From: a virus
Strand: one strand, 5' to 3'
Virus record (IMG/VR): IMGVR_UViG_3300045999_010887
Location: 1 to 64,000 of that record
DNA length: 64,000 nt
The notes under the pieces were generated by a model. That model was not told the origin of the DNA. It searched no databases and saw nothing but the letters and a program-made list of their open reading frames with translations. The position numbers and the translations under genes were made by a program. Positions 2,580 through 63,521 of the stretch are shown here, piece after piece (the first letter of the stretch is position 1; each line of letters starts with the position of its first letter).

Positions 2580-2604
2580 CCCCTGGGAGACCAGGGGTTT
2601 TTTC
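2580..2604 (+). terminator. Rho-independent terminator
   Basis: CCCCTGG (2580-2586), loop GAGA, CCAGGGG (2591-2597), then six T (2598-2603). A 7-bp GC-rich stem with a T-run, placed just after the helix-hairpin-helix gene, is a canonical terminator. It would separate the capsid transcript from the following peptidase gene. Confidence 0.9.
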
Positions 2605-9925: not shown

Positions 9926-10147
9926 ATGAAATTAGCAGGCAAGTACAGCACTGGTTACACACCAGAAATTTTTCCAAATCAAAACGTCATGCAAGCAATG
10001 GCAGCGCAAACAAAAAATCCTGAACTAAAGAATGCTTTTCTTGATTTTCAGTATCCGTTTCGACATGAAGATTTGATTAATTCTGAATACTCTCCTGAAG
10101 TTAAGCAATTGATTTTGGACGCTGCCACACGGCAAAACTACCGCTAA
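9926..10147 (+). CDS. Small MKLAGKY-type protein
   Basis: 73 residues. The start is ATG 9926, with AGGTGAAG upstream; an in-frame GTG lies six bases earlier. It opens MKLAGKYSTGYTP, closely similar to the opening MQIAGRYMDTSGP of the 55-residue protein at 35682. Both are therefore probably members of one small cyanophage family. No function known. Confidence 0.6.
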   Translation: MKLAGKYSTGYTPEIFPNQNVMQAMAAQTKNPELKNAFLDFQYPFRHEDLINSEYSPEVKQLILDAATRQNYR

Positions 10148-10336: not shown

Positions 10337-11002
10337 ATGTCTGATTTTTCTAGTGCAATTGAATTAATCAGGAAGTACGAGGGGTATAACGAAAAGGCAT
10401 ACCCCGATCCTTCTACAGGTTCCGAACCTTACACCATTGGTTACGGCACGCAGTATTACCCAGACGGATCTCCAGTCAGGCGCGGACATCTCTGCACAAA
10501 ACGCAAAGCCCTGGAGTATCTGTACCATGAGTTGGAAGTGCTTGATACTGAACTCAAGCGATTAAATCTTGGCCTGGATGATTCCATGCACCAAGCGTTA
10601 ATTTCTTTCATTCATTCGGTTGGCTGGAATTCTTTCCTGTACAGCAACATCATCGACTGCCTGGAACAAGAGGACTGGCGTGGTGCCAGCGAAGAGATTC
10701 CTAAGTGGATTTTTGATCAAGATCACAAGATGGTAGGAGCCCTTCTGCATCGTCGCCAGGAGGAAGTCTCGTTGTTCTTGCGTGAGATCAACGACAGCGC
10801 CTGGGTTTCAACAGAGATCCTGCTGACTGCCTTCCGCAACTACTCTGCGGCTGCTCACCAGGTGCGCGCCATCCGCCTCCTGGAGGAGGCTGTCAACCCT
10901 TATACTCTGTCTGAGTTTGCTAACAATTTCAGAATTGAAGAGGATCCCTGGACCGCGACTGAGTTTGATGATTTTGGCCTAAAAGGCATCTGCGACATTT
11001 AG
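10337..11002 (+). CDS. GH24 (T4-type) lysozyme
   Basis: 221 residues. Hydrolyses the MurNAc-GlcNAc bond. The catalytic region is IRKYEGYNEKAYPDPSTG (E15, D24) followed by YTIGYGTQY (T33), the Glu/Asp/Thr arrangement of T4 lysozyme. The helical lobe contains ALISFIHSVGWNSF, matching the family's N-x-G segment. The last 60 residues are extra and unassigned. No signal peptide is seen, so release would need a holin. One of four wall-cleaving enzymes in the window. Confidence 0.85.
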   Translation: MSDFSSAIELIRKYEGYNEKAYPDPSTGSEPYTIGYGTQYYPDGSPVRRGHLCTKRKALEYLYHELEVLDTELKRLNLGLDDSMHQALISFIHSVGWNSFLYSNIIDCLEQEDWRGASEEIPKWIFDQDHKMVGALLHRRQEEVSLFLREINDSAWVSTEILLTAFRNYSAAAHQVRAIRLLEEAVNPYTLSEFANNFRIEEDPWTATEFDDFGLKGICDI

Positions 11003-47755: not shown

Positions 47756-48005
47756 AGAGATCAACTGGTTTATGTTTAACTTCAATCATTTCACCTTTTC
47801 GATTCCAACACTGACCACAATCAGGACACTGATAATGGTTAATACGGTCAGTGCCCAAATACTCCACACCAATAACACGACTAAAGAATTTAGATTCGGG
47901 TGAATAATAACCCTTGTCTATGGATTCTTGAGGGATGTAGGAGTGAATCCAGCTGACTTCGCAAACCGGGCACTGTTCTACTTTGGTGATGTCGAGGTAG
48001 TCCAT
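47742..48005 (-). CDS. Zinc-ribbon protein
   Basis: 87 residues. CPVC (residues 12-15) and CPDCGQCW make a zinc ribbon, with a strand-rich centre (FFSRVIGVEYLG). It starts inside the end of the polymerase gene (TGATG overlap). It may bind nucleic acid or partner the polymerase. Confidence 0.6.
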   Translation of the reverse strand: MDYLDITKVEQCPVCEVSWIHSYIPQESIDKGYYSPESKFFSRVIGVEYLGTDRINHYQCPDCGQCWNRKGEMIEVKHKPVDLSSLR

Positions 48006-49870
48006 CAGTGGGTCTGAGACCAGTCCGATCCTACCCTGGAATCACCTTCGATACTGCAGCGGAACCCAAAGAATTCCTGTGCCTGTGGGAAAGCAAGCAT
48101 GGCCTGCTCTCTGATGGCGTCTGTGTATTGAGGCTTGCACGCTAGTTGCACTTCATCATGAACCATCAATAGTTGTTGCCAGTCATGATCGTATTGCAAA
48201 CCAAGGTTTTGTTTGATGTTGTTGTGAATATTAATCACAACTTGTTTCATAAGGATTGCACCAGCTGATTGCAACAACACATTCAATCCTTTGAATGCGG
48301 AACGACAATACAACTGACGACGATCCAAACCAATCAGATAACCACGCAAACCAATAGTCTTATCAATCTCCAGCTTAAGAGCTTTCAATGCTGGGACACC
48401 ACGCATAAAACCATCGATGGCATTACGCCCAAGCATGCGCAGTTCATCTTCATCTTTGAGATTTGGATCAATGATTGAACCAGCCTTTACAGATCCACAG
48501 CCATAGAGCATGCCGTAAAGCAACCTCTTGCTGATGTCCCTGGTTTCTACGCCAAATTGCTTTTGGTTGTAGGTGTGGATGTCAACGGATTCATCGGTTA
48601 CCAGCCTTGCGTATTCACCGTTATCCCAGACGGCAAGGTATCCAGCAAGGCAACGTAATTCAAGTGCCTTAGCGTCAATGCCAATGAGATCCCACCCGTC
48701 AGGAGGAACGAACAAACTTCGACACTCTTTTCCGTAAGGTGAGTAACTGGCTGGGACCTGACCCATATTTGGATTGCGGTGTGCACAGCGCCCAGTAATG
48801 CAACCGTTAGTAATAAGATCGCCGTGGATACAACCAGTGTCATTGTTGTAGAGCTTGATCCAAGCATTGTTGCCATCAGCAATTTGACCAAGGCGCTTTT
48901 TGATCAGCATATACTCAGCCAAAGGTTTAGCCTCTGGGTATGGGAGTCGTTCTAATACTTCGTCATCAAGAACTGGATTTCCTTTCTCAGTTGTTTTCTC
49001 TGGAGTCCATCCGTACTTTTGGCGGAGTCGATCAGCAATCTGCTGACGAGATCCAGGATTGAACTCTTCATAGCTGACTTTAGTGAAAGGTTGTCCTTTG
49101 ACATAACCACGATTCTTGTTGTTTACTTTTGGAACAAATGTTGATTCATGTTTGATAGGTGGAAAGATTTGTTTTAGATGGGATTCAAGTTCTGTTTCCT
49201 TTGCTCTGAGATTATCCACCAAATCAAGAGCAGCATCCAAATCGAAAGGAACACCTGATCTAATTTGTTTGTTAATCGCCAAAGCAAAGTTGTGCTCCAA
49301 GAGAATGGAGGACTCTGGATAATTTTGCGCAGCGATAAGCTGCCAAAGATTGAAGGTGACTGCAACGTCTTGGATGCAGTAGTCCAACATCTCCTGCGAG
49401 TATTCCGTGAAGTCTTTGAAGTCAATCTTATGGTTGGCCAATCGCCATCCCCATGCCTTAAGCGATGGGGATCCACGTTGTGCCTTTGGAACTTCCGGAT
49501 ATTGTTCAATGTCAAGCTCATAGAGAACCTCCTTGGGCCAGATCAAACGTGAACAGATGAGGGTGTCAATGATGCGAGCGTTGGTCTTAAAGTCTGGAAA
49601 CAGTTTCTTTAAGACAGGGATGTCATAAAAGCAGATGTTGTGGCCAATAAGAACATCAGCGTTACGCAAATACTCAAGAGCAGTGTCAATGTTGTCAGGA
49701 CCAAAAGACAAAGTGCTTTGACTGTTGATGTCATAGATGACAACACAGTGAACTTTGGCGACTTTGTCATACAGTCCGTCTGACTCCAAATCAAAGACAT
49801 ACCATTTGTCATTTGCGGAACTGGGCTTCATCGCGAACTTCGAGTTCTTCACTGGCAAGGCTGCTGTCAT
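48005..49870 (-). CDS. Family A DNA polymerase with 3'-5' exonuclease
   Basis: 621 residues; ATG 49831 (MKPSSANDKWYVFDLES) is the better start since it reduces overlap with the gene at 49809. Exonuclease motifs: FDLESDGL (Exo I) and LIGHNICFYDIPVL (Exo II). Polymerase motifs: GIDAKALELRCLAGYLA (motif A), SKRLLYGMLYGCG (motif B) and MVHDEVQLA (motif C). Motif A reads DAKALELR instead of the usual D-x-SQIELR. T7-like replication with the D5-type primase-helicase is inferred. Confidence 0.92.
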   Translation of the reverse strand: MTAALPVKNSKFAMKPSSANDKWYVFDLESDGLYDKVAKVHCVVIYDINSQSTLSFGPDNIDTALEYLRNADVLIGHNICFYDIPVLKKLFPDFKTNARIIDTLICSRLIWPKEVLYELDIEQYPEVPKAQRGSPSLKAWGWRLANHKIDFKDFTEYSQEMLDYCIQDVAVTFNLWQLIAAQNYPESSILLEHNFALAINKQIRSGVPFDLDAALDLVDNLRAKETELESHLKQIFPPIKHESTFVPKVNNKNRGYVKGQPFTKVSYEEFNPGSRQQIADRLRQKYGWTPEKTTEKGNPVLDDEVLERLPYPEAKPLAEYMLIKKRLGQIADGNNAWIKLYNNDTGCIHGDLITNGCITGRCAHRNPNMGQVPASYSPYGKECRSLFVPPDGWDLIGIDAKALELRCLAGYLAVWDNGEYARLVTDESVDIHTYNQKQFGVETRDISKRLLYGMLYGCGSVKAGSIIDPNLKDEDELRMLGRNAIDGFMRGVPALKALKLEIDKTIGLRGYLIGLDRRQLYCRSAFKGLNVLLQSAGAILMKQVVINIHNNIKQNLGLQYDHDWQQLLMVHDEVQLACKPQYTDAIREQAMLAFPQAQEFFGFRCSIEGDSRVGSDWSQTH

Positions 49871-56992: not shown

Positions 56993-57022
56993 GAGTTGAA
57001 TTGATTGAGTAGGTACTGAAAA

Positions 57023-57054
57023 GCCTGGGACTTACACCTTACGGATGCCCAGGC
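57023..57054 (-). ncRNA. Covarying double-stem element D1
   Basis: Minus strand: outer stem GCCTGGG/CCCAGGC, internal loop CAT opposite TGTAAGT, short inner stem CC/GG with GTAA loop. Placed between the stop at 57068 and the leader of the PcfJ-like gene. Confidence 0.7.
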
Positions 57055-57495: not shown

Positions 57496-57537
57496 GAATT
57501 GAAATGAGTTGAGGTAATGGACAAAAGCTGGGACTTA

Positions 57538-57555
57538 CACCTTACGGATGCCCAG
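57538..57555 (-). ncRNA. Covarying double-stem element D2
   Basis: Minus strand: CTGGG/CCCAG outer stem, CAT and TGTAAGT internal loop, CC-GTAA-GG inner stem. Differs from D1 only in outer flank. Between the stop at 57560 and the start at 57495. Confidence 0.68.
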
Positions 57556-61579: not shown

Positions 61580-61828
61580 TCAGAAGATCGTTGCGTAAAG
61601 ATTGTCGAGGTGCATCGTGGTAATGTACTGATAGTAATCAGACATTGCAGCTAATAACTCCTTGGTACCAGCAGGAATACCGTTACCAAGAGTTTGTACC
61701 TCACGTTCAATCCAACAAGGATTGCCATAGCAGTCATCAACTTCTACTTCATAACGAAGCATAGTTGATTCACCGCCATGCCAAGTGATACGCTCGGTTG
61801 CACCTTCGTAAGGGTAGTAGCACAGCAT
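61580..61828 (-). CDS. Small hypothetical protein
   Basis: 82 residues from ATG 61828: LCYYPYEGATERITWHGGES then DDCYGNPCWIEREVQTLGNG. Beta-rich. Preceded by element T1 and the leader CTACTCAACACAACACT. Unknown. Confidence 0.55.
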   Translation of the reverse strand: MLCYYPYEGATERITWHGGESTMLRYEVEVDDCYGNPCWIEREVQTLGNGIPAGTKELLAAMSDYYQYITTMHLDNLYATIF

Positions 61829-61846
61829 AGTGTTGTGTTGAGTAGA

Positions 61847-61891
61847 TGCCACGGGATTGTGGCAAGTGTTGTGTGGGGGATTTGATCCCCC
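61847..61891 (-). ncRNA. T-loop plus GTGGCA hairpin element T1
   Basis: Minus strand: GGGGG-ATCAAAT-CCCCC, then TGCCAC-AATCCC-GTGGCA, then the leader. The first loop resembles a tRNA T-loop. First of five related elements. Confidence 0.65.
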
Positions 61892-61905
61892 GGCATCACG
61901 CCTGG

Positions 61906-62100
61906 TCAGAAGACCATCACAACGTCGTCGGCCTCCATCATCTCCTCGAAGGACATGATGCGCACGTCATGCGTGCCTTGTATGCCGTTGTTAAGTTCGG
62001 GTGCATTGAGCTCGAAGTCGCATTGAGCTGCTTCGATTAGCGCCTCTTCCCACTGGAAGGAAACGCCATGTTGCACGCCGTCAATCACAATGAAGTACAT
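61906..62100 (-). CDS. Small acidic protein
   Basis: 64 residues: FIVIDGVQHGVSFQWEEALI, EAAQCDFELNAPELNNGIQG. A beta-alpha unit with an acidic end. Leader TACTTAACTCAACACC. Unknown. Confidence 0.55.
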   Translation of the reverse strand: MYFIVIDGVQHGVSFQWEEALIEAAQCDFELNAPELNNGIQGTHDVRIMSFEEMMEADDVVMVF

Positions 62101-62118
62101 GGTGTTGAGTTAAGTAGA

Positions 62119-62163
62119 TGCCACGAGATTGTGGCAAGTCTGAACCAGGGGATTGCACCCTGG
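62119..62163 (-). ncRNA. T-loop plus GTGGCA hairpin element T2
   Basis: Minus strand: CCAGGG-TGCAATC-CCCTGG, then TGCCAC-AATCTC-GTGGCA. Located directly after the stop at 62182, with CCG-TTTAAG-CGG just before. Confidence 0.66.
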
Positions 62164-62181
62164 AACGCCGCTTAAACGGAC

Positions 62182-62361
62182 TCAGATAGCGTAACCGTTG
62201 GTGATGCACCAGTTACGGTGAAGCGTGTCATGCTCCTTCGGCCAGTCATGTGTAATGCACTGGTGAGCCGTTGCCTTGTCCACAAAATGGATGACGACTT
62301 GGCTACCAATGCCCATGATGGAAGCAGCAATGAGCACGCAGGATGCAATACGTTGAGTCAT
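62182..62361 (-). CDS. Small membrane or secreted protein
   Basis: 59 residues from ATG 62361. A basic start and hydrophobic segment (RIASCVLIAASIMGIGSQVV), then a His/Cys-rich tail (HQCITHDWPKEHDTLHRNWC). Metal binding in the periplasm is possible. Leader CTACTCAACGCAATC. Confidence 0.55.
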   Translation of the reverse strand: MTQRIASCVLIAASIMGIGSQVVIHFVDKATAHQCITHDWPKEHDTLHRNWCITNGYAI

Positions 62362-62377
62362 GATTGCGTTGAGTAGA

Positions 62378-62422
62378 TGCCACGGGATTGTGGCAAGTCT
62401 GATGCCGGGAATTGAACCCGGC
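62378..62422 (-). ncRNA. T-loop plus GTGGCA hairpin element T3
   Basis: Minus strand: GCCGGG-TTCAATT-CCCGGC, a canonical tRNA T-arm in sequence, then TGCCAC-AATCCC-GTGGCA. Not part of a full tRNA. Confidence 0.7.
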
Positions 62423-62435
62423 TGCGCACCAGCTA

Positions 62436-62618
62436 TCAGAAAGGATGATAGTCGACTACCAGAAGATCTTGCTCCCAATCCTCAAAGGATTGGAAGTATT
62501 CAAGAGCTTCTTGCTCGTTGTCAAACACCTTCTCACATCCCTGGAAGTAGGCGTCTTCGAATGTGTAGTCAGCGTAAACAGCAAAAGGATTACGCTTAAC
62601 TTGAACGGAGTAATACAT
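62436..62618 (-). CDS. Small acidic protein
   Basis: 60 residues: YYSVQVKRNPFAVYADYTFE then CEKVFDNEQEALEYFQSFED. Beta then helix. Leader CTACTCAACTCAAC directly before ATG. Unknown. Confidence 0.55.
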   Translation of the reverse strand: MYYSVQVKRNPFAVYADYTFEDAYFQGCEKVFDNEQEALEYFQSFEDWEQDLLVVDYHPF

Positions 62619-62633
62619 GTTGAGTTGAGTAGA

Positions 62634-62678
62634 TGCCACGGGATTGTGGCAATAACTGGACCAGGGTTTGCACCTGGT
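62634..62678 (-). ncRNA. T-loop plus GTGGCA hairpin element T4
   Basis: Minus strand: ATCCG-TTAAAG-CGGGT small stem right after the stop at 62695, then ACCAGG-TGCAAAC-CCTGGT, then TGCCAC-AATCCC-GTGGCA. Stem bases differ from T5 but pair in both. Confidence 0.7.
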
Positions 62679-62694
62679 CACCCGCTTTAACGGA

Positions 62695-62925
62695 TCAGCT
62701 AACTTCGTAAATTGCCCATGACATTGAGTCATAAACCTTCCTGGCGATTTCGCCATTCGGATCGTTAACCTCAATGAAACGGTCAACTATTTCAGCCATG
62801 CAGATTTCATGGCTGACCATTCTCTGACAACAATCTTCAATTGCTGCCTCACGAAGTGAGATCAGCACTTCAAGAGTGTGCGCAAGAGCTTGGTCCACAG
62901 GATTCTCCTGTTGTGTGGTGCCCAT
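62695..62925 (-). CDS. Small helical protein
   Basis: 76 residues from ATG 62925: ALAHTLEVLISLREAAIEDC, MAEIVDRFIEVNDPNGEIAR. Acidic helices. The frame is open upstream into element T5. Unknown. Confidence 0.55.
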   Translation of the reverse strand: MGTTQQENPVDQALAHTLEVLISLREAAIEDCCQRMVSHEICMAEIVDRFIEVNDPNGEIARKVYDSMSWAIYEVS

Positions 62926-62927
62926 CT

Positions 62928-62966
62928 CCACAGGGGGCAATAACTGTGGGAGGGTTTGCACCTCCC
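62928..62966 (-). ncRNA. T-loop element T5 with variant second hairpin
   Basis: Minus strand: GGGAGG-TGCAAAC-CCTCCC, then CCACAG/CTGTGG in place of TGCCAC/GTGGCA. The two stems share two bases. Preceded by TCCG-TTAAAG-CGGG after the stop at 62983. Confidence 0.65.
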
Positions 62967-62982
62967 AACCCGCTTTAACGGA

Positions 62983-63213
62983 TCAGTTGTTCTCCAGCAT
63001 CTCGTCCACGTAGGACTTGATAACCTGGAGGTGTTCGGCAGTAAGTACCTGGCTACGGCCATACTCAAGCAGGTCAAGGACCTGGAGCATGACTTGATCG
63101 CCAGCTTCCTGCCGGGTCGGTACGCCACACATATCGAAGATCTCTTCGCATGACATCTCAGTGATGTCAACGCAGTCGATCTGACGAACGGTGGCGATGG
63201 TGGTGTTGGTCAC
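62983..63213 (-). CDS. Small hypothetical protein
   Basis: 76 residues from GTG 63213: TNTTIATVRQIDCVDITEMS, MLQVLDLLEYGRSQVLTAEH. I prefer this start to ATG 63282 because GGAG lies six bases upstream and because the longer frame would run through element D5. Unknown. Confidence 0.6.
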   Translation of the reverse strand: MTNTTIATVRQIDCVDITEMSCEEIFDMCGVPTRQEAGDQVMLQVLDLLEYGRSQVLTAEHLQVIKSYVDEMLENN

Positions 63214-63228
63214 GGTGTACTCCGGTAG

Positions 63229-63262
63229 CTTGGACTTACACCACTGAAGTGTGGATGCCAAG
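63229..63262 (-). ncRNA. Covarying double-stem element D5
   Basis: Minus strand: outer stem CTTGG/CCAAG, internal loop CAT opposite TGTAAGT, inner stem CCAC/GTGG with 6-base loop. Outer stem differs from D1-D4 with both strands changed, and matches part of D6. Confidence 0.72.
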
Positions 63263-63521
63263 AACACCTGGTGACCTACCACCTGAGTTGTCTGCTACGT
63301 TTAACGTCCAGCTCGACGATTACACTGCTTAAATCCCGACCTTTAACATCGGGATTAACCAAGTCTTGTATTACTCACTGTCCTATTTGGCCCGTGGGGG
63401 AGCGTAGCGCCACATCCAACCGAAATGTCAGGAAATGTTGACAATTGAGAGGATAATGAGTGGAAGACTCACTAAATGAGGGCTATATAAACCCCTGGTC
63501 GCCCAGGGGAAGAGATAACCG
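63263..63521 (-). other. Gene-free control region with hairpins
   Basis: No credible gene on either strand. It contains CGTC/GACG with TTAAACG (63297-63318), AATCCCGA/TCGGGATT (63332-63356) and CCCCTGG/CCAGGGG (63492-63509). TTGACA occurs near 63434 on the plus strand but without a matching -10 at the right distance. Probably holds a promoter or terminator for the array; I cannot place it. Confidence 0.5.

What the first reader, a model, noticed from the sequence alone, without database searches (positions are those of the whole stretch)
61829..62982. Five T-loop-like spacer elements
Between five consecutive small genes the spacer is built to one plan: stop codon, hairpin with a 5-6 bp stem and a 7-base loop (TGCAAAC, TGCAATC, TTCAATT, ATCAAAT), second hairpin (TGCCAC/GTGGCA or CCACAG/CTGTGG), leader, ATG. 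The first loop copies the tRNA T-loop (TTCAANN), and its stems covary: GGGAGG/CCTCCC, ACCAGG/CCTGGT, CCAGGG/CCCTGG, GCCGGG/CCCGGC, GGGGG/CCCCC. They may recruit tRNA-processing or tRNA-binding proteins.
Basis: partly seen in the sequence, partly recalled or inferred. Interest (0 to 1): 0.75.

Follow-up and report, generated by a model that had tools for sequence, protein, structure and literature searches.

The report
tRNA-like punctuation between phage genes
A freshwater cyanobacterial virus separates its small genes with RNA pieces that copy the end of a transfer RNA used by tRNA-trimming enzymes, so it may get host tRNA-processing machinery to cut its long messages into single-gene messages.

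Summary
The window belongs to an 80.6-kb virus related to Synechococcus phage S-EIV1; the genes lie on the minus strand. All five spacers carry a tRNA-like structure. An outer stem, usually containing the upstream gene's stop codon, stacks without a linker on a T-arm with a T-loop (consensus NKYRANN; closing pair G-C in 209/211). The stack totals 12 (or 13) base pairs, as acceptor (7) plus T stem (5) do in tRNA, and then come one nucleotide (mostly A) and UU. Elements 1, 2 and 4 add a small D-arm-like hairpin, element 3 a GG-containing D-loop-like linker, and element 5 is a four-arm cloverleaf. I collected 275 distinct copies on 118 loci. Stems covary strongly (98.5% of cells paired; 159 double changes), and the split between the two stems moves (7+5, 6+6, 5+7, 4+8) while the sum stays 12-13. 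Two collections anchored only on the downstream hairpin give the same T-arm in 68/70 and 67/74 spacers. No curated Rfam family matches. Best explanation: host RNase Z (possibly RNase P) cuts the operon transcript here, giving single-gene mRNAs with a tRNA-like 3' end and a 5' hairpin. Structure: near certain. Cleavage: inferred, untested.

The parts
62941..62988 (-). Element 1, tRNA-like three-way junction: P1 AACTG/CAGTT (62988-62984 with 62946-62942; stop TGA 62985-62983 of the 62983-63282 ORF overlaps it), P2 CCGU-UAAA-GCGG (62981-62970), T-arm TGGGAGG-TGCAAAC-CCTCCCA (62967-62947), discriminator A 62941, then TT
   Evidence: Model R1 80.3 bits; 7+5 bp; MFE fold of the element alone gives this structure
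62653..62700 (-). Element 2, same class: P1 AGCTG/CAGTT, P2 CCGU-UAAA-GCGG, T-arm GACCAGG-TGCAAAC-CCTGGTC, discriminator A, then TT; stop TGA overlaps P1
   Evidence: 78.1 bits; MFE fold with z = -4.4 including the downstream hairpin; 84% identical 51-nt repeat of the element 1 region but with a different, still paired T stem
62397..62440 (-). Element 3: P1 TCTGAT/ATCAGA (6 bp, contains stop TGA 62438-62436), D-loop-like linker AGCTGGTGCGCA, T-arm GCCGGG-TTCAATT-CCCGGC (6 bp), discriminator C, then TT
   Evidence: 6+6 = 12 bp; same class in L112, L113, L064, L157; weak Rfam mascRNA match 18.7 bits, far below gathering 42.5
62138..62186 (-). Element 4: P1 TCTGA/TCAGA, P2 CCGU-UUAA-GCGG, T-arm CCAGGG-TGCAATC-CCCTGG plus one U.U mismatch, discriminator C, then TT; stop TGA inside P1
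   Evidence: R1 35 bits, E 1.4e-7; fold; same class with GGCAGG/CCTGCC stem in many relatives
61866..61923 (-). Element 5, four-arm cloverleaf: P1 GTTGTG/CACAAC (5' strand inside the codons), arm 2 TGGTC-TTCT-GACCA with the stop TGA 61908-61906, arm 3 GGC-GTGAT-GCC, T-arm GGGGG-ATCAAAT-CCCCC, discriminator C, then TT
   Evidence: Fold z = -4.1; same class in about 20 relatives with P1 covariation GTTGTG/CACAAC versus GTTGAG/CTCAAC; weak Rfam tRNA match 18 bits, below gathering 29
62920..62940 (-). TT plus downstream hairpin P4 of element 1 (GCCC...GGGC)
   Evidence: P4 starts two bases after the discriminator in 190/194 distinct tails
62635..62652 (-). TT plus P4 of element 2 (GCCAC AATCCC GTGGC)
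62379..62396 (-). TT plus P4 of element 3
62120..62137 (-). TT plus P4 of element 4 (GCCAC AATCTC GTGGC)
61848..61865 (-). TT plus P4 of element 5
61580..63282 (-). Run of small ORFs (about 60-100 aa) separated by elements 1-5: 62983-63282, 62695-62898, 62436-62618, 62182-62361, 61906-62100, and 61580-61828 downstream
   Evidence: no PHROGs match for any of them

Best explanation
Each spacer encodes a tRNA-like structure at the 3' end of the upstream gene. Shown by comparison: the conserved part is the upper half of tRNA, namely a T-loop, T stem and acceptor-like stem stacked to 12-13 bp, then a discriminator position (mostly A) and UU; the D-side arm varies freely. Inferred: the host's tRNA 3'-processing endonuclease RNase Z clamps the T-arm elbow, measures the stack and cuts after the discriminator. 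This would split a polycistronic phage transcript into single-gene mRNAs. Each would keep its complete reading frame with stop codon and end in a stable tRNA-like 3' terminus, and the next would begin UU-P4, a 5'-terminal hairpin that should protect it from 5'-end-dependent decay. RNase P could also act, but its cut at the 5' side of P1 would remove the stop codon from most upstream genes, so it would be a turnover rather than a maturation step.
For: Covariation: 64 distinct type-A sequences, 15 pairs, 98.5% of cells paired, 159 cells with changes on both sides, 0/500 shuffles reach it. Ruler: T-loop-like hairpins lie 12 or 13 nt plus one base before TTRCC in 218/229 cases, other 7-nt loops show no preferred distance. 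Collections anchored on P4 only: 68/70 and 67/74 spacers have the T-arm at this place, with splits 7+5, 6+6, 5+7, 4+8. Loop: position 56 is C in 267/275, 57 A or G; first pair G-C 209/211. Without the TTRCC anchor, TT follows the discriminator in 140/175 (background 8%) and CCA in 0/175. Stop-codon offset varies from -3 to +20 relative to P1, so the fixed distance is T-loop to 3' end, not stop to structure. Literature: RNase P measures a fixed 12-bp distance from the T-loop and cleaves acceptor+T-arm mini-substrates (PMC11143913); any RNA presenting such a stack can be a substrate, and RNase Z clamps the elbow and measures distance (PMC4919913); B. [quoted passage not shown] C at position 74 is the strongest RNase Z antideterminant, and Synechocystis has a bacterial-type RNase Z (PMC3161902).
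Against: No cleavage, transcript-end or binding data exist here. G at T-loop position 55 in 172/275 excludes pseudouridine there and the usual G18-psi55 contact. The twelfth pair is unpaired in 40/211. Discriminator is C in some copies, including elements 3-5 of the window. UU directly abuts P4 and could be conserved for P4 or as an RNase E site. Folding the whole element-1 spacer favours an alternative pairing. Loci are related, so counts are not independent events.
Confidence: 0.58

Rival explanations
1. The element is bound but not cut: a tRNA mimic that stabilises the 3' side of messages or titrates tRNA-handling proteins (RNase P/Z, CCA-adding enzyme, elongation factor Tu).
For: T-loop, stack length and discriminator are those read by several tRNA-binding proteins; CCA-adding enzyme also measures the elbow-to-3'-end distance.
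Against: The UU and a second hairpin placed exactly at the expected cut site are not needed for mere binding; 1-4 copies per genome by model R1 are few for titration.
Confidence: 0.17
2. RNase P is the main enzyme: it cuts at the 5' side of P1 and thereby removes the stop codon and triggers turnover or shut-off of the upstream message once ribosomes leave.
For: The 12-bp stack with T-loop is the RNase P ruler substrate; RNase P is known to cut polycistronic mRNAs and phage RNAs.
Against: The predicted cut lies upstream of the stop codon in 233 of 250 elements, destroying the reading frame; last pair often open. The precisely conserved feature is on the 3' side.
Confidence: 0.1
3. A single-strand cleavage site (RNase E type, AUU) kept open between two protective hairpins; the tRNA resemblance is only a stable fold.
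For: A/UU between two hairpins is conserved.
Against: Would not need a T-loop with position-specific bases, a closing G-C pair, or a 12-13 bp sum kept while the junction moves.
Confidence: 0.08
4. Translation control: structure at the stop codon regulates termination or reinitiation at the next gene.
For: Stop codon lies in P1 in most copies (196 of 250).
Against: Stop offset varies from -3 to +20; in the cloverleaf class it lies 16 nt into the element in a different arm, while the distance from T-loop to the 3' side stays fixed.
Confidence: 0.05
5. DNA-level linker repeats that mainly help gene cassettes recombine.
For: P4 and leader are near-identical repeats, and the same linkers flank different genes in different contigs.
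Against: Compensatory changes in RNA stems, differing between copies, are not what recombination alone would keep. May be a by-product.
Confidence: 0.02

Closest known systems
tRNA (Rfam RF00005) and tRNA punctuation of organelle transcripts
   Same: Acceptor+T stack of 12-13 bp, T-loop, discriminator and CCA-less 3' trailer; lies between genes of a polycistronic unit
   Different: No anticodon arm in elements 1-4, acceptor strand overlaps a coding sequence, no ARAGORN hit and Rfam score below gathering
mascRNA/menRNA of MALAT1 and NEAT1 (RF01684)
   Same: tRNA-like fold at the 3' end of a longer RNA, made by tRNA-processing enzymes (ELAC2 role in MALAT1: PMC3161902)
   Different: Human nuclear long non-coding RNA; element 3 scores only 18.7 bits against a cut-off of 42.5; here many copies between phage genes
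RNase P sites in bacterial operon mRNAs, phage M3 RNA, C4 antisense RNA, T4 gene 32 mRNA
   Same: Non-tRNA phage or operon RNAs cut by a tRNA-processing enzyme (PMC11143913)
   Different: Single unrelated sites; not a reiterated intercistronic family with a constant ruler and embedded stop codon
T7 early-region RNase III sites (from general knowledge)
   Same: Reiterated intercistronic structures that cut a phage early transcript into single-gene mRNAs with protective 3' hairpins
   Different: T7 uses long duplexes for RNase III; here the stack is 12-13 bp with a T-loop, too short for RNase III
PeSL cassettes of T4-type phages (general knowledge; the paper itself was not read)
   Same: Small repeated cassettes with a stem-loop between mobile phage genes
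   Different: PeSLs carry an early promoter; no promoter excess here and the structure is tRNA-like

Membership tests
tRNA gene | Complete cloverleaf with anticodon arm scored by tRNA models | tested here: not met
   ARAGORN finds only tRNA-Pro and tRNA-Leu in the window; Rfam tRNA not reached at gathering, element 5 at 18 bits versus 29
tRNA-like structure (acceptor+T half) | T-loop with U/N54, C56, R57, A58 on a stem closed by G-C | tested here: met
   Unconditioned loops in P4-anchored set; position tables
tRNA-like structure (acceptor+T half) | Coaxial stack of 12 (13) bp, no linker between T stem and acceptor 3' strand | tested here: met
RNase Z substrate | Discriminator followed by non-C at position 74, no CCA | tested here: met
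   TT 140/175, CCA 0/175; rule from PMC3161902
RNase Z or RNase P substrate | Cleavage at the expected phosphodiester bond | not testable with these tools
   Needs enzyme assay or RNA-end mapping
mascRNA/menRNA | Rfam RF01684 score at or above 42.5 bits | tested here: not met
   18.7 bits for element 3
Any curated Rfam family | Gathering-threshold match | tested here: not met
   Whole window: only two tRNAs; five related loci with E up to 5: nothing assignable to the elements
PeSL (promoter plus stem-loop) | Early promoter within the cassette | tested here: not met
   3 promoter-like sites versus 4.8 expected, none in the spacers on the minus strand; only sigma-70-type patterns tested
Intrinsic terminator | GC-rich hairpin followed by a U tract, on the minus strand | tested here: not met
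   No minus-strand terminator-like site at the elements
RNase III site | Long duplex of about 20 bp or more | tested here: not met
   Longest stack 12-13 bp

The most novel reading that the evidence does not exclude
A lineage of DNA phages carries a dedicated family of tRNA mimics, with variants from two-stem minihelix to cloverleaf, as modular punctuation marks that overlap the stop codon and route its messages into the host tRNA 3'-processing pathway, giving mRNAs with tRNA-like 3' ends (possibly even CCA-tailed).
Probability: 0.5. Interest if true: 0.87.

Novelty: new variant of a known kind. Interest (0 to 1): 0.78.

Why it matters
It would be an operon-wide use of tRNA mimicry as mRNA punctuation in a DNA virus, with evolution having varied every part of tRNA except the half measured by processing enzymes. 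That makes it a natural mutagenesis series for what RNase Z and RNase P read. It is directly testable: the isolate S-EIV1 carries two copies, and short transcripts with purified enzymes would decide.

Tried and rejected
Elements as terminators, RNase III sites, promoter cassettes, stop-position-dependent translation signals and known riboswitches: rejected or disfavoured. Elements as recent duplications: rejected by covariation. I first thought element 5 was degenerate because its P1 failed the three-way-junction descriptor; folding showed a cloverleaf whose P1 lies in the coding sequence, and relatives confirm it. Search of 84,980 species genomes with the type-A pattern gave only two hits, with gaps of 4 and 10 instead of 7, that is, chance. 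A protein-coding chance match (L052) was excluded. The small ORFs have no PHROGs match. The first viral-contig scan with a neighbouring protein gave only one relative. No prior description was found in the open-access library, which lacks many subscription papers, possibly including the original S-EIV1 paper.

Full report
What the window is. The window is bases 1-64000 of an 80,654-bp virus record. Its family-A DNA polymerase (48005-49870, minus) is 68% identical to that of Synechococcus phage S-EIV1, far closer than to any other phage record, and 59 bp of one element region match S-EIV1 DNA. The host is therefore probably a freshwater picocyanobacterium (inference). The finding lies on the minus strand, near the start of a run of small ORFs without PHROGs matches.

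Checking the observation. All five hairpins and loops are present. Folded alone, elements 1 and 2 form a three-way junction: P1 (5 bp) overlaps the stop codon; two bases; P2 with four pairs CCGU/GCGG; two bases; a 7-bp T-arm; and with no linker the 3' strand of P1. Element 3 has 6+6 bp and a GG-containing linker AGCUGGUGCGCA. Element 4 resembles 1 and 2 with one U.U mismatch. Element 5 folds as a cloverleaf of four arms, its first strand lying within the last codons and the stop codon within the second arm.

Relatives. A pattern for the type-A core, CCGTYAAAGCGGGT-N(4-12)-TGCAAAC, hits 82 stretches of viral contigs; the gap is always 7, and one of the hits is a protein-coding chance match. S-EIV1 itself has two copies. 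In 64 distinct sequences the 15 pairs are 98.5% formed, with 159 cells changed on both sides and no shuffle reaching these values. P1 covaries even where the stop changes from TGA to TAA (CTG/CAG to CTA/TAG) and where the last sense codon changes (AAG.TGA with CACTT, AGA.TGA with CATCA). The model built from these finds further classes and hits all 29 long records searched, 1-4 copies each, clustered. Bacterial and archaeal genomes gave only chance matches.

An unbiased test. I then searched only for the downstream hairpin, ignoring the T-loop. For hairpin TTGCCAC..GTGGCAT, 68 of 70 distinct upstream sequences have a hairpin at the T-arm place, 67 of them with a T-loop-like loop. For hairpin TTGCC..GGAGATRGGCACCGCACA, 67 of 74 do. 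P1 plus P3 total 12 (53 and 54 cases) or 13 (15 and 13), although the split varies: 7+5, 6+6, 5+7, 4+8. Hairpins with other 7-nt loops show no preferred distance. In all, 275 distinct elements on 118 loci were collected. In these, T-loop position 56 is C in 267, position 57 is A or G and position 58 is A (both required by that search), and the loop-closing pair is G-C in 209 of 211. Without requiring TTRCC, 175 minihelices were found, 0 in shuffles; TT follows the discriminator position in 140, AT in 27 (one-base register), CCA in none. Canonical tRNA loops TTCGATT and TTCGACT occur, some with an 8-nt linker AUGGUGUA that carries the GG of a D-loop.

The cloverleaf class of element 5 recurs in about twenty contigs. 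Its P1 strand encodes amino acids, and the change GTTGAG to GTTGTG is matched by CTCAAC to CACAAC about 40 nt downstream.

Anatomy on the 3' side. A hairpin P4 starts two bases after the discriminator position in 190 of 194 distinct tails, against 13% at control TTRCC sites. Stop codons of ORFs of at least 30 codons lie in the 5' half of 250 of 275 elements, but their place relative to P1 varies from -3 to +20. What is constant is the distance from T-loop to the 3' boundary.

Mechanism. RNase P and RNase Z recognise exactly this half of tRNA and measure it. The 3' side fits RNase Z: discriminator mostly A, then UU rather than the C74 that blocks the enzyme. A cut there leaves the upstream reading frame whole and gives the downstream mRNA a 5'-terminal hairpin; a cut by RNase P would separate 233 of 250 reading frames from their stop codons. 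I therefore favour RNase Z. That 5'-terminal hairpins protect bacterial mRNAs is general knowledge. The window's own tRNA-Pro also lacks CCA and has A-UUAUUC at its 3' end, whereas tRNA-Leu encodes CCA. No step of cleavage was shown.

Limits. Sequences are related and partly fragmentary, so counts overstate independent events. The descriptor chooses the best split, but shuffles and control anchors show low background. The whole-spacer fold of element 1 prefers another pairing that relatives do not keep. E-values of model R1 are rough.

Novelty. No Rfam family matches at its threshold and no description was found in the open-access library searched. tRNA-like structures and tRNA-enzyme cuts in mRNAs are known kinds; a reiterated, variable family overlapping stop codons in a phage operon is, as far as I could determine, a new variant.

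Noticed in passing
window 57020-57052, 57523-57555, 63230-63265 (minus strand); S-EIV1 L002 8033 and 8724: A second structured RNA motif between genes: stem (CTGG/CAGG, CTAG/TAGT, ATGG/CATG, CTTG/AAGC) enclosing GCATCC, a variable hairpin and GGTGTAAGTCC; 40 distinct copies in the fetched loci with compensatory stem changes. No Rfam hit in the window.
   Followed up: partly
L002 about 9976-10010 and 10694-10725; L043 after its T-loop element; window about 63295-63325 (minus): A third motif, e.g. GTCCTGAGTATGACATTAAAGTGCTCAC or CGTC-GAGCTG-GACGTTAAACGTAGC, looks like a small H-type pseudoknot (TGAG with GCTCA) and sometimes stands in the place of P4.
   Followed up: no
window 62896-62912 (minus); many relatives: The start region downstream of P4 often forms a small hairpin that includes the Shine-Dalgarno and abuts or includes the start codon, with matching changes (CAGGAGAATCCTGTGG, ACGGAGAACACCGTGA, ATGGAGTTATCCATGG).
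   Followed up: no
window 61830-61846, 62105-62118, 62620-62634 (minus) and elsewhere: Many genes have an unstructured leader of CTACTCAACTCAACA type without Shine-Dalgarno directly before ATG.
   Followed up: no
window 2580-2600 and 63489-63509: A 21-nt inverted pair (95%) CCCCTGGG..CCAGGGGTTT; each is itself a hairpin followed by T-rich sequence, and the second lies just upstream of the small-gene run; may mark a boundary of transcription units.
   Followed up: no
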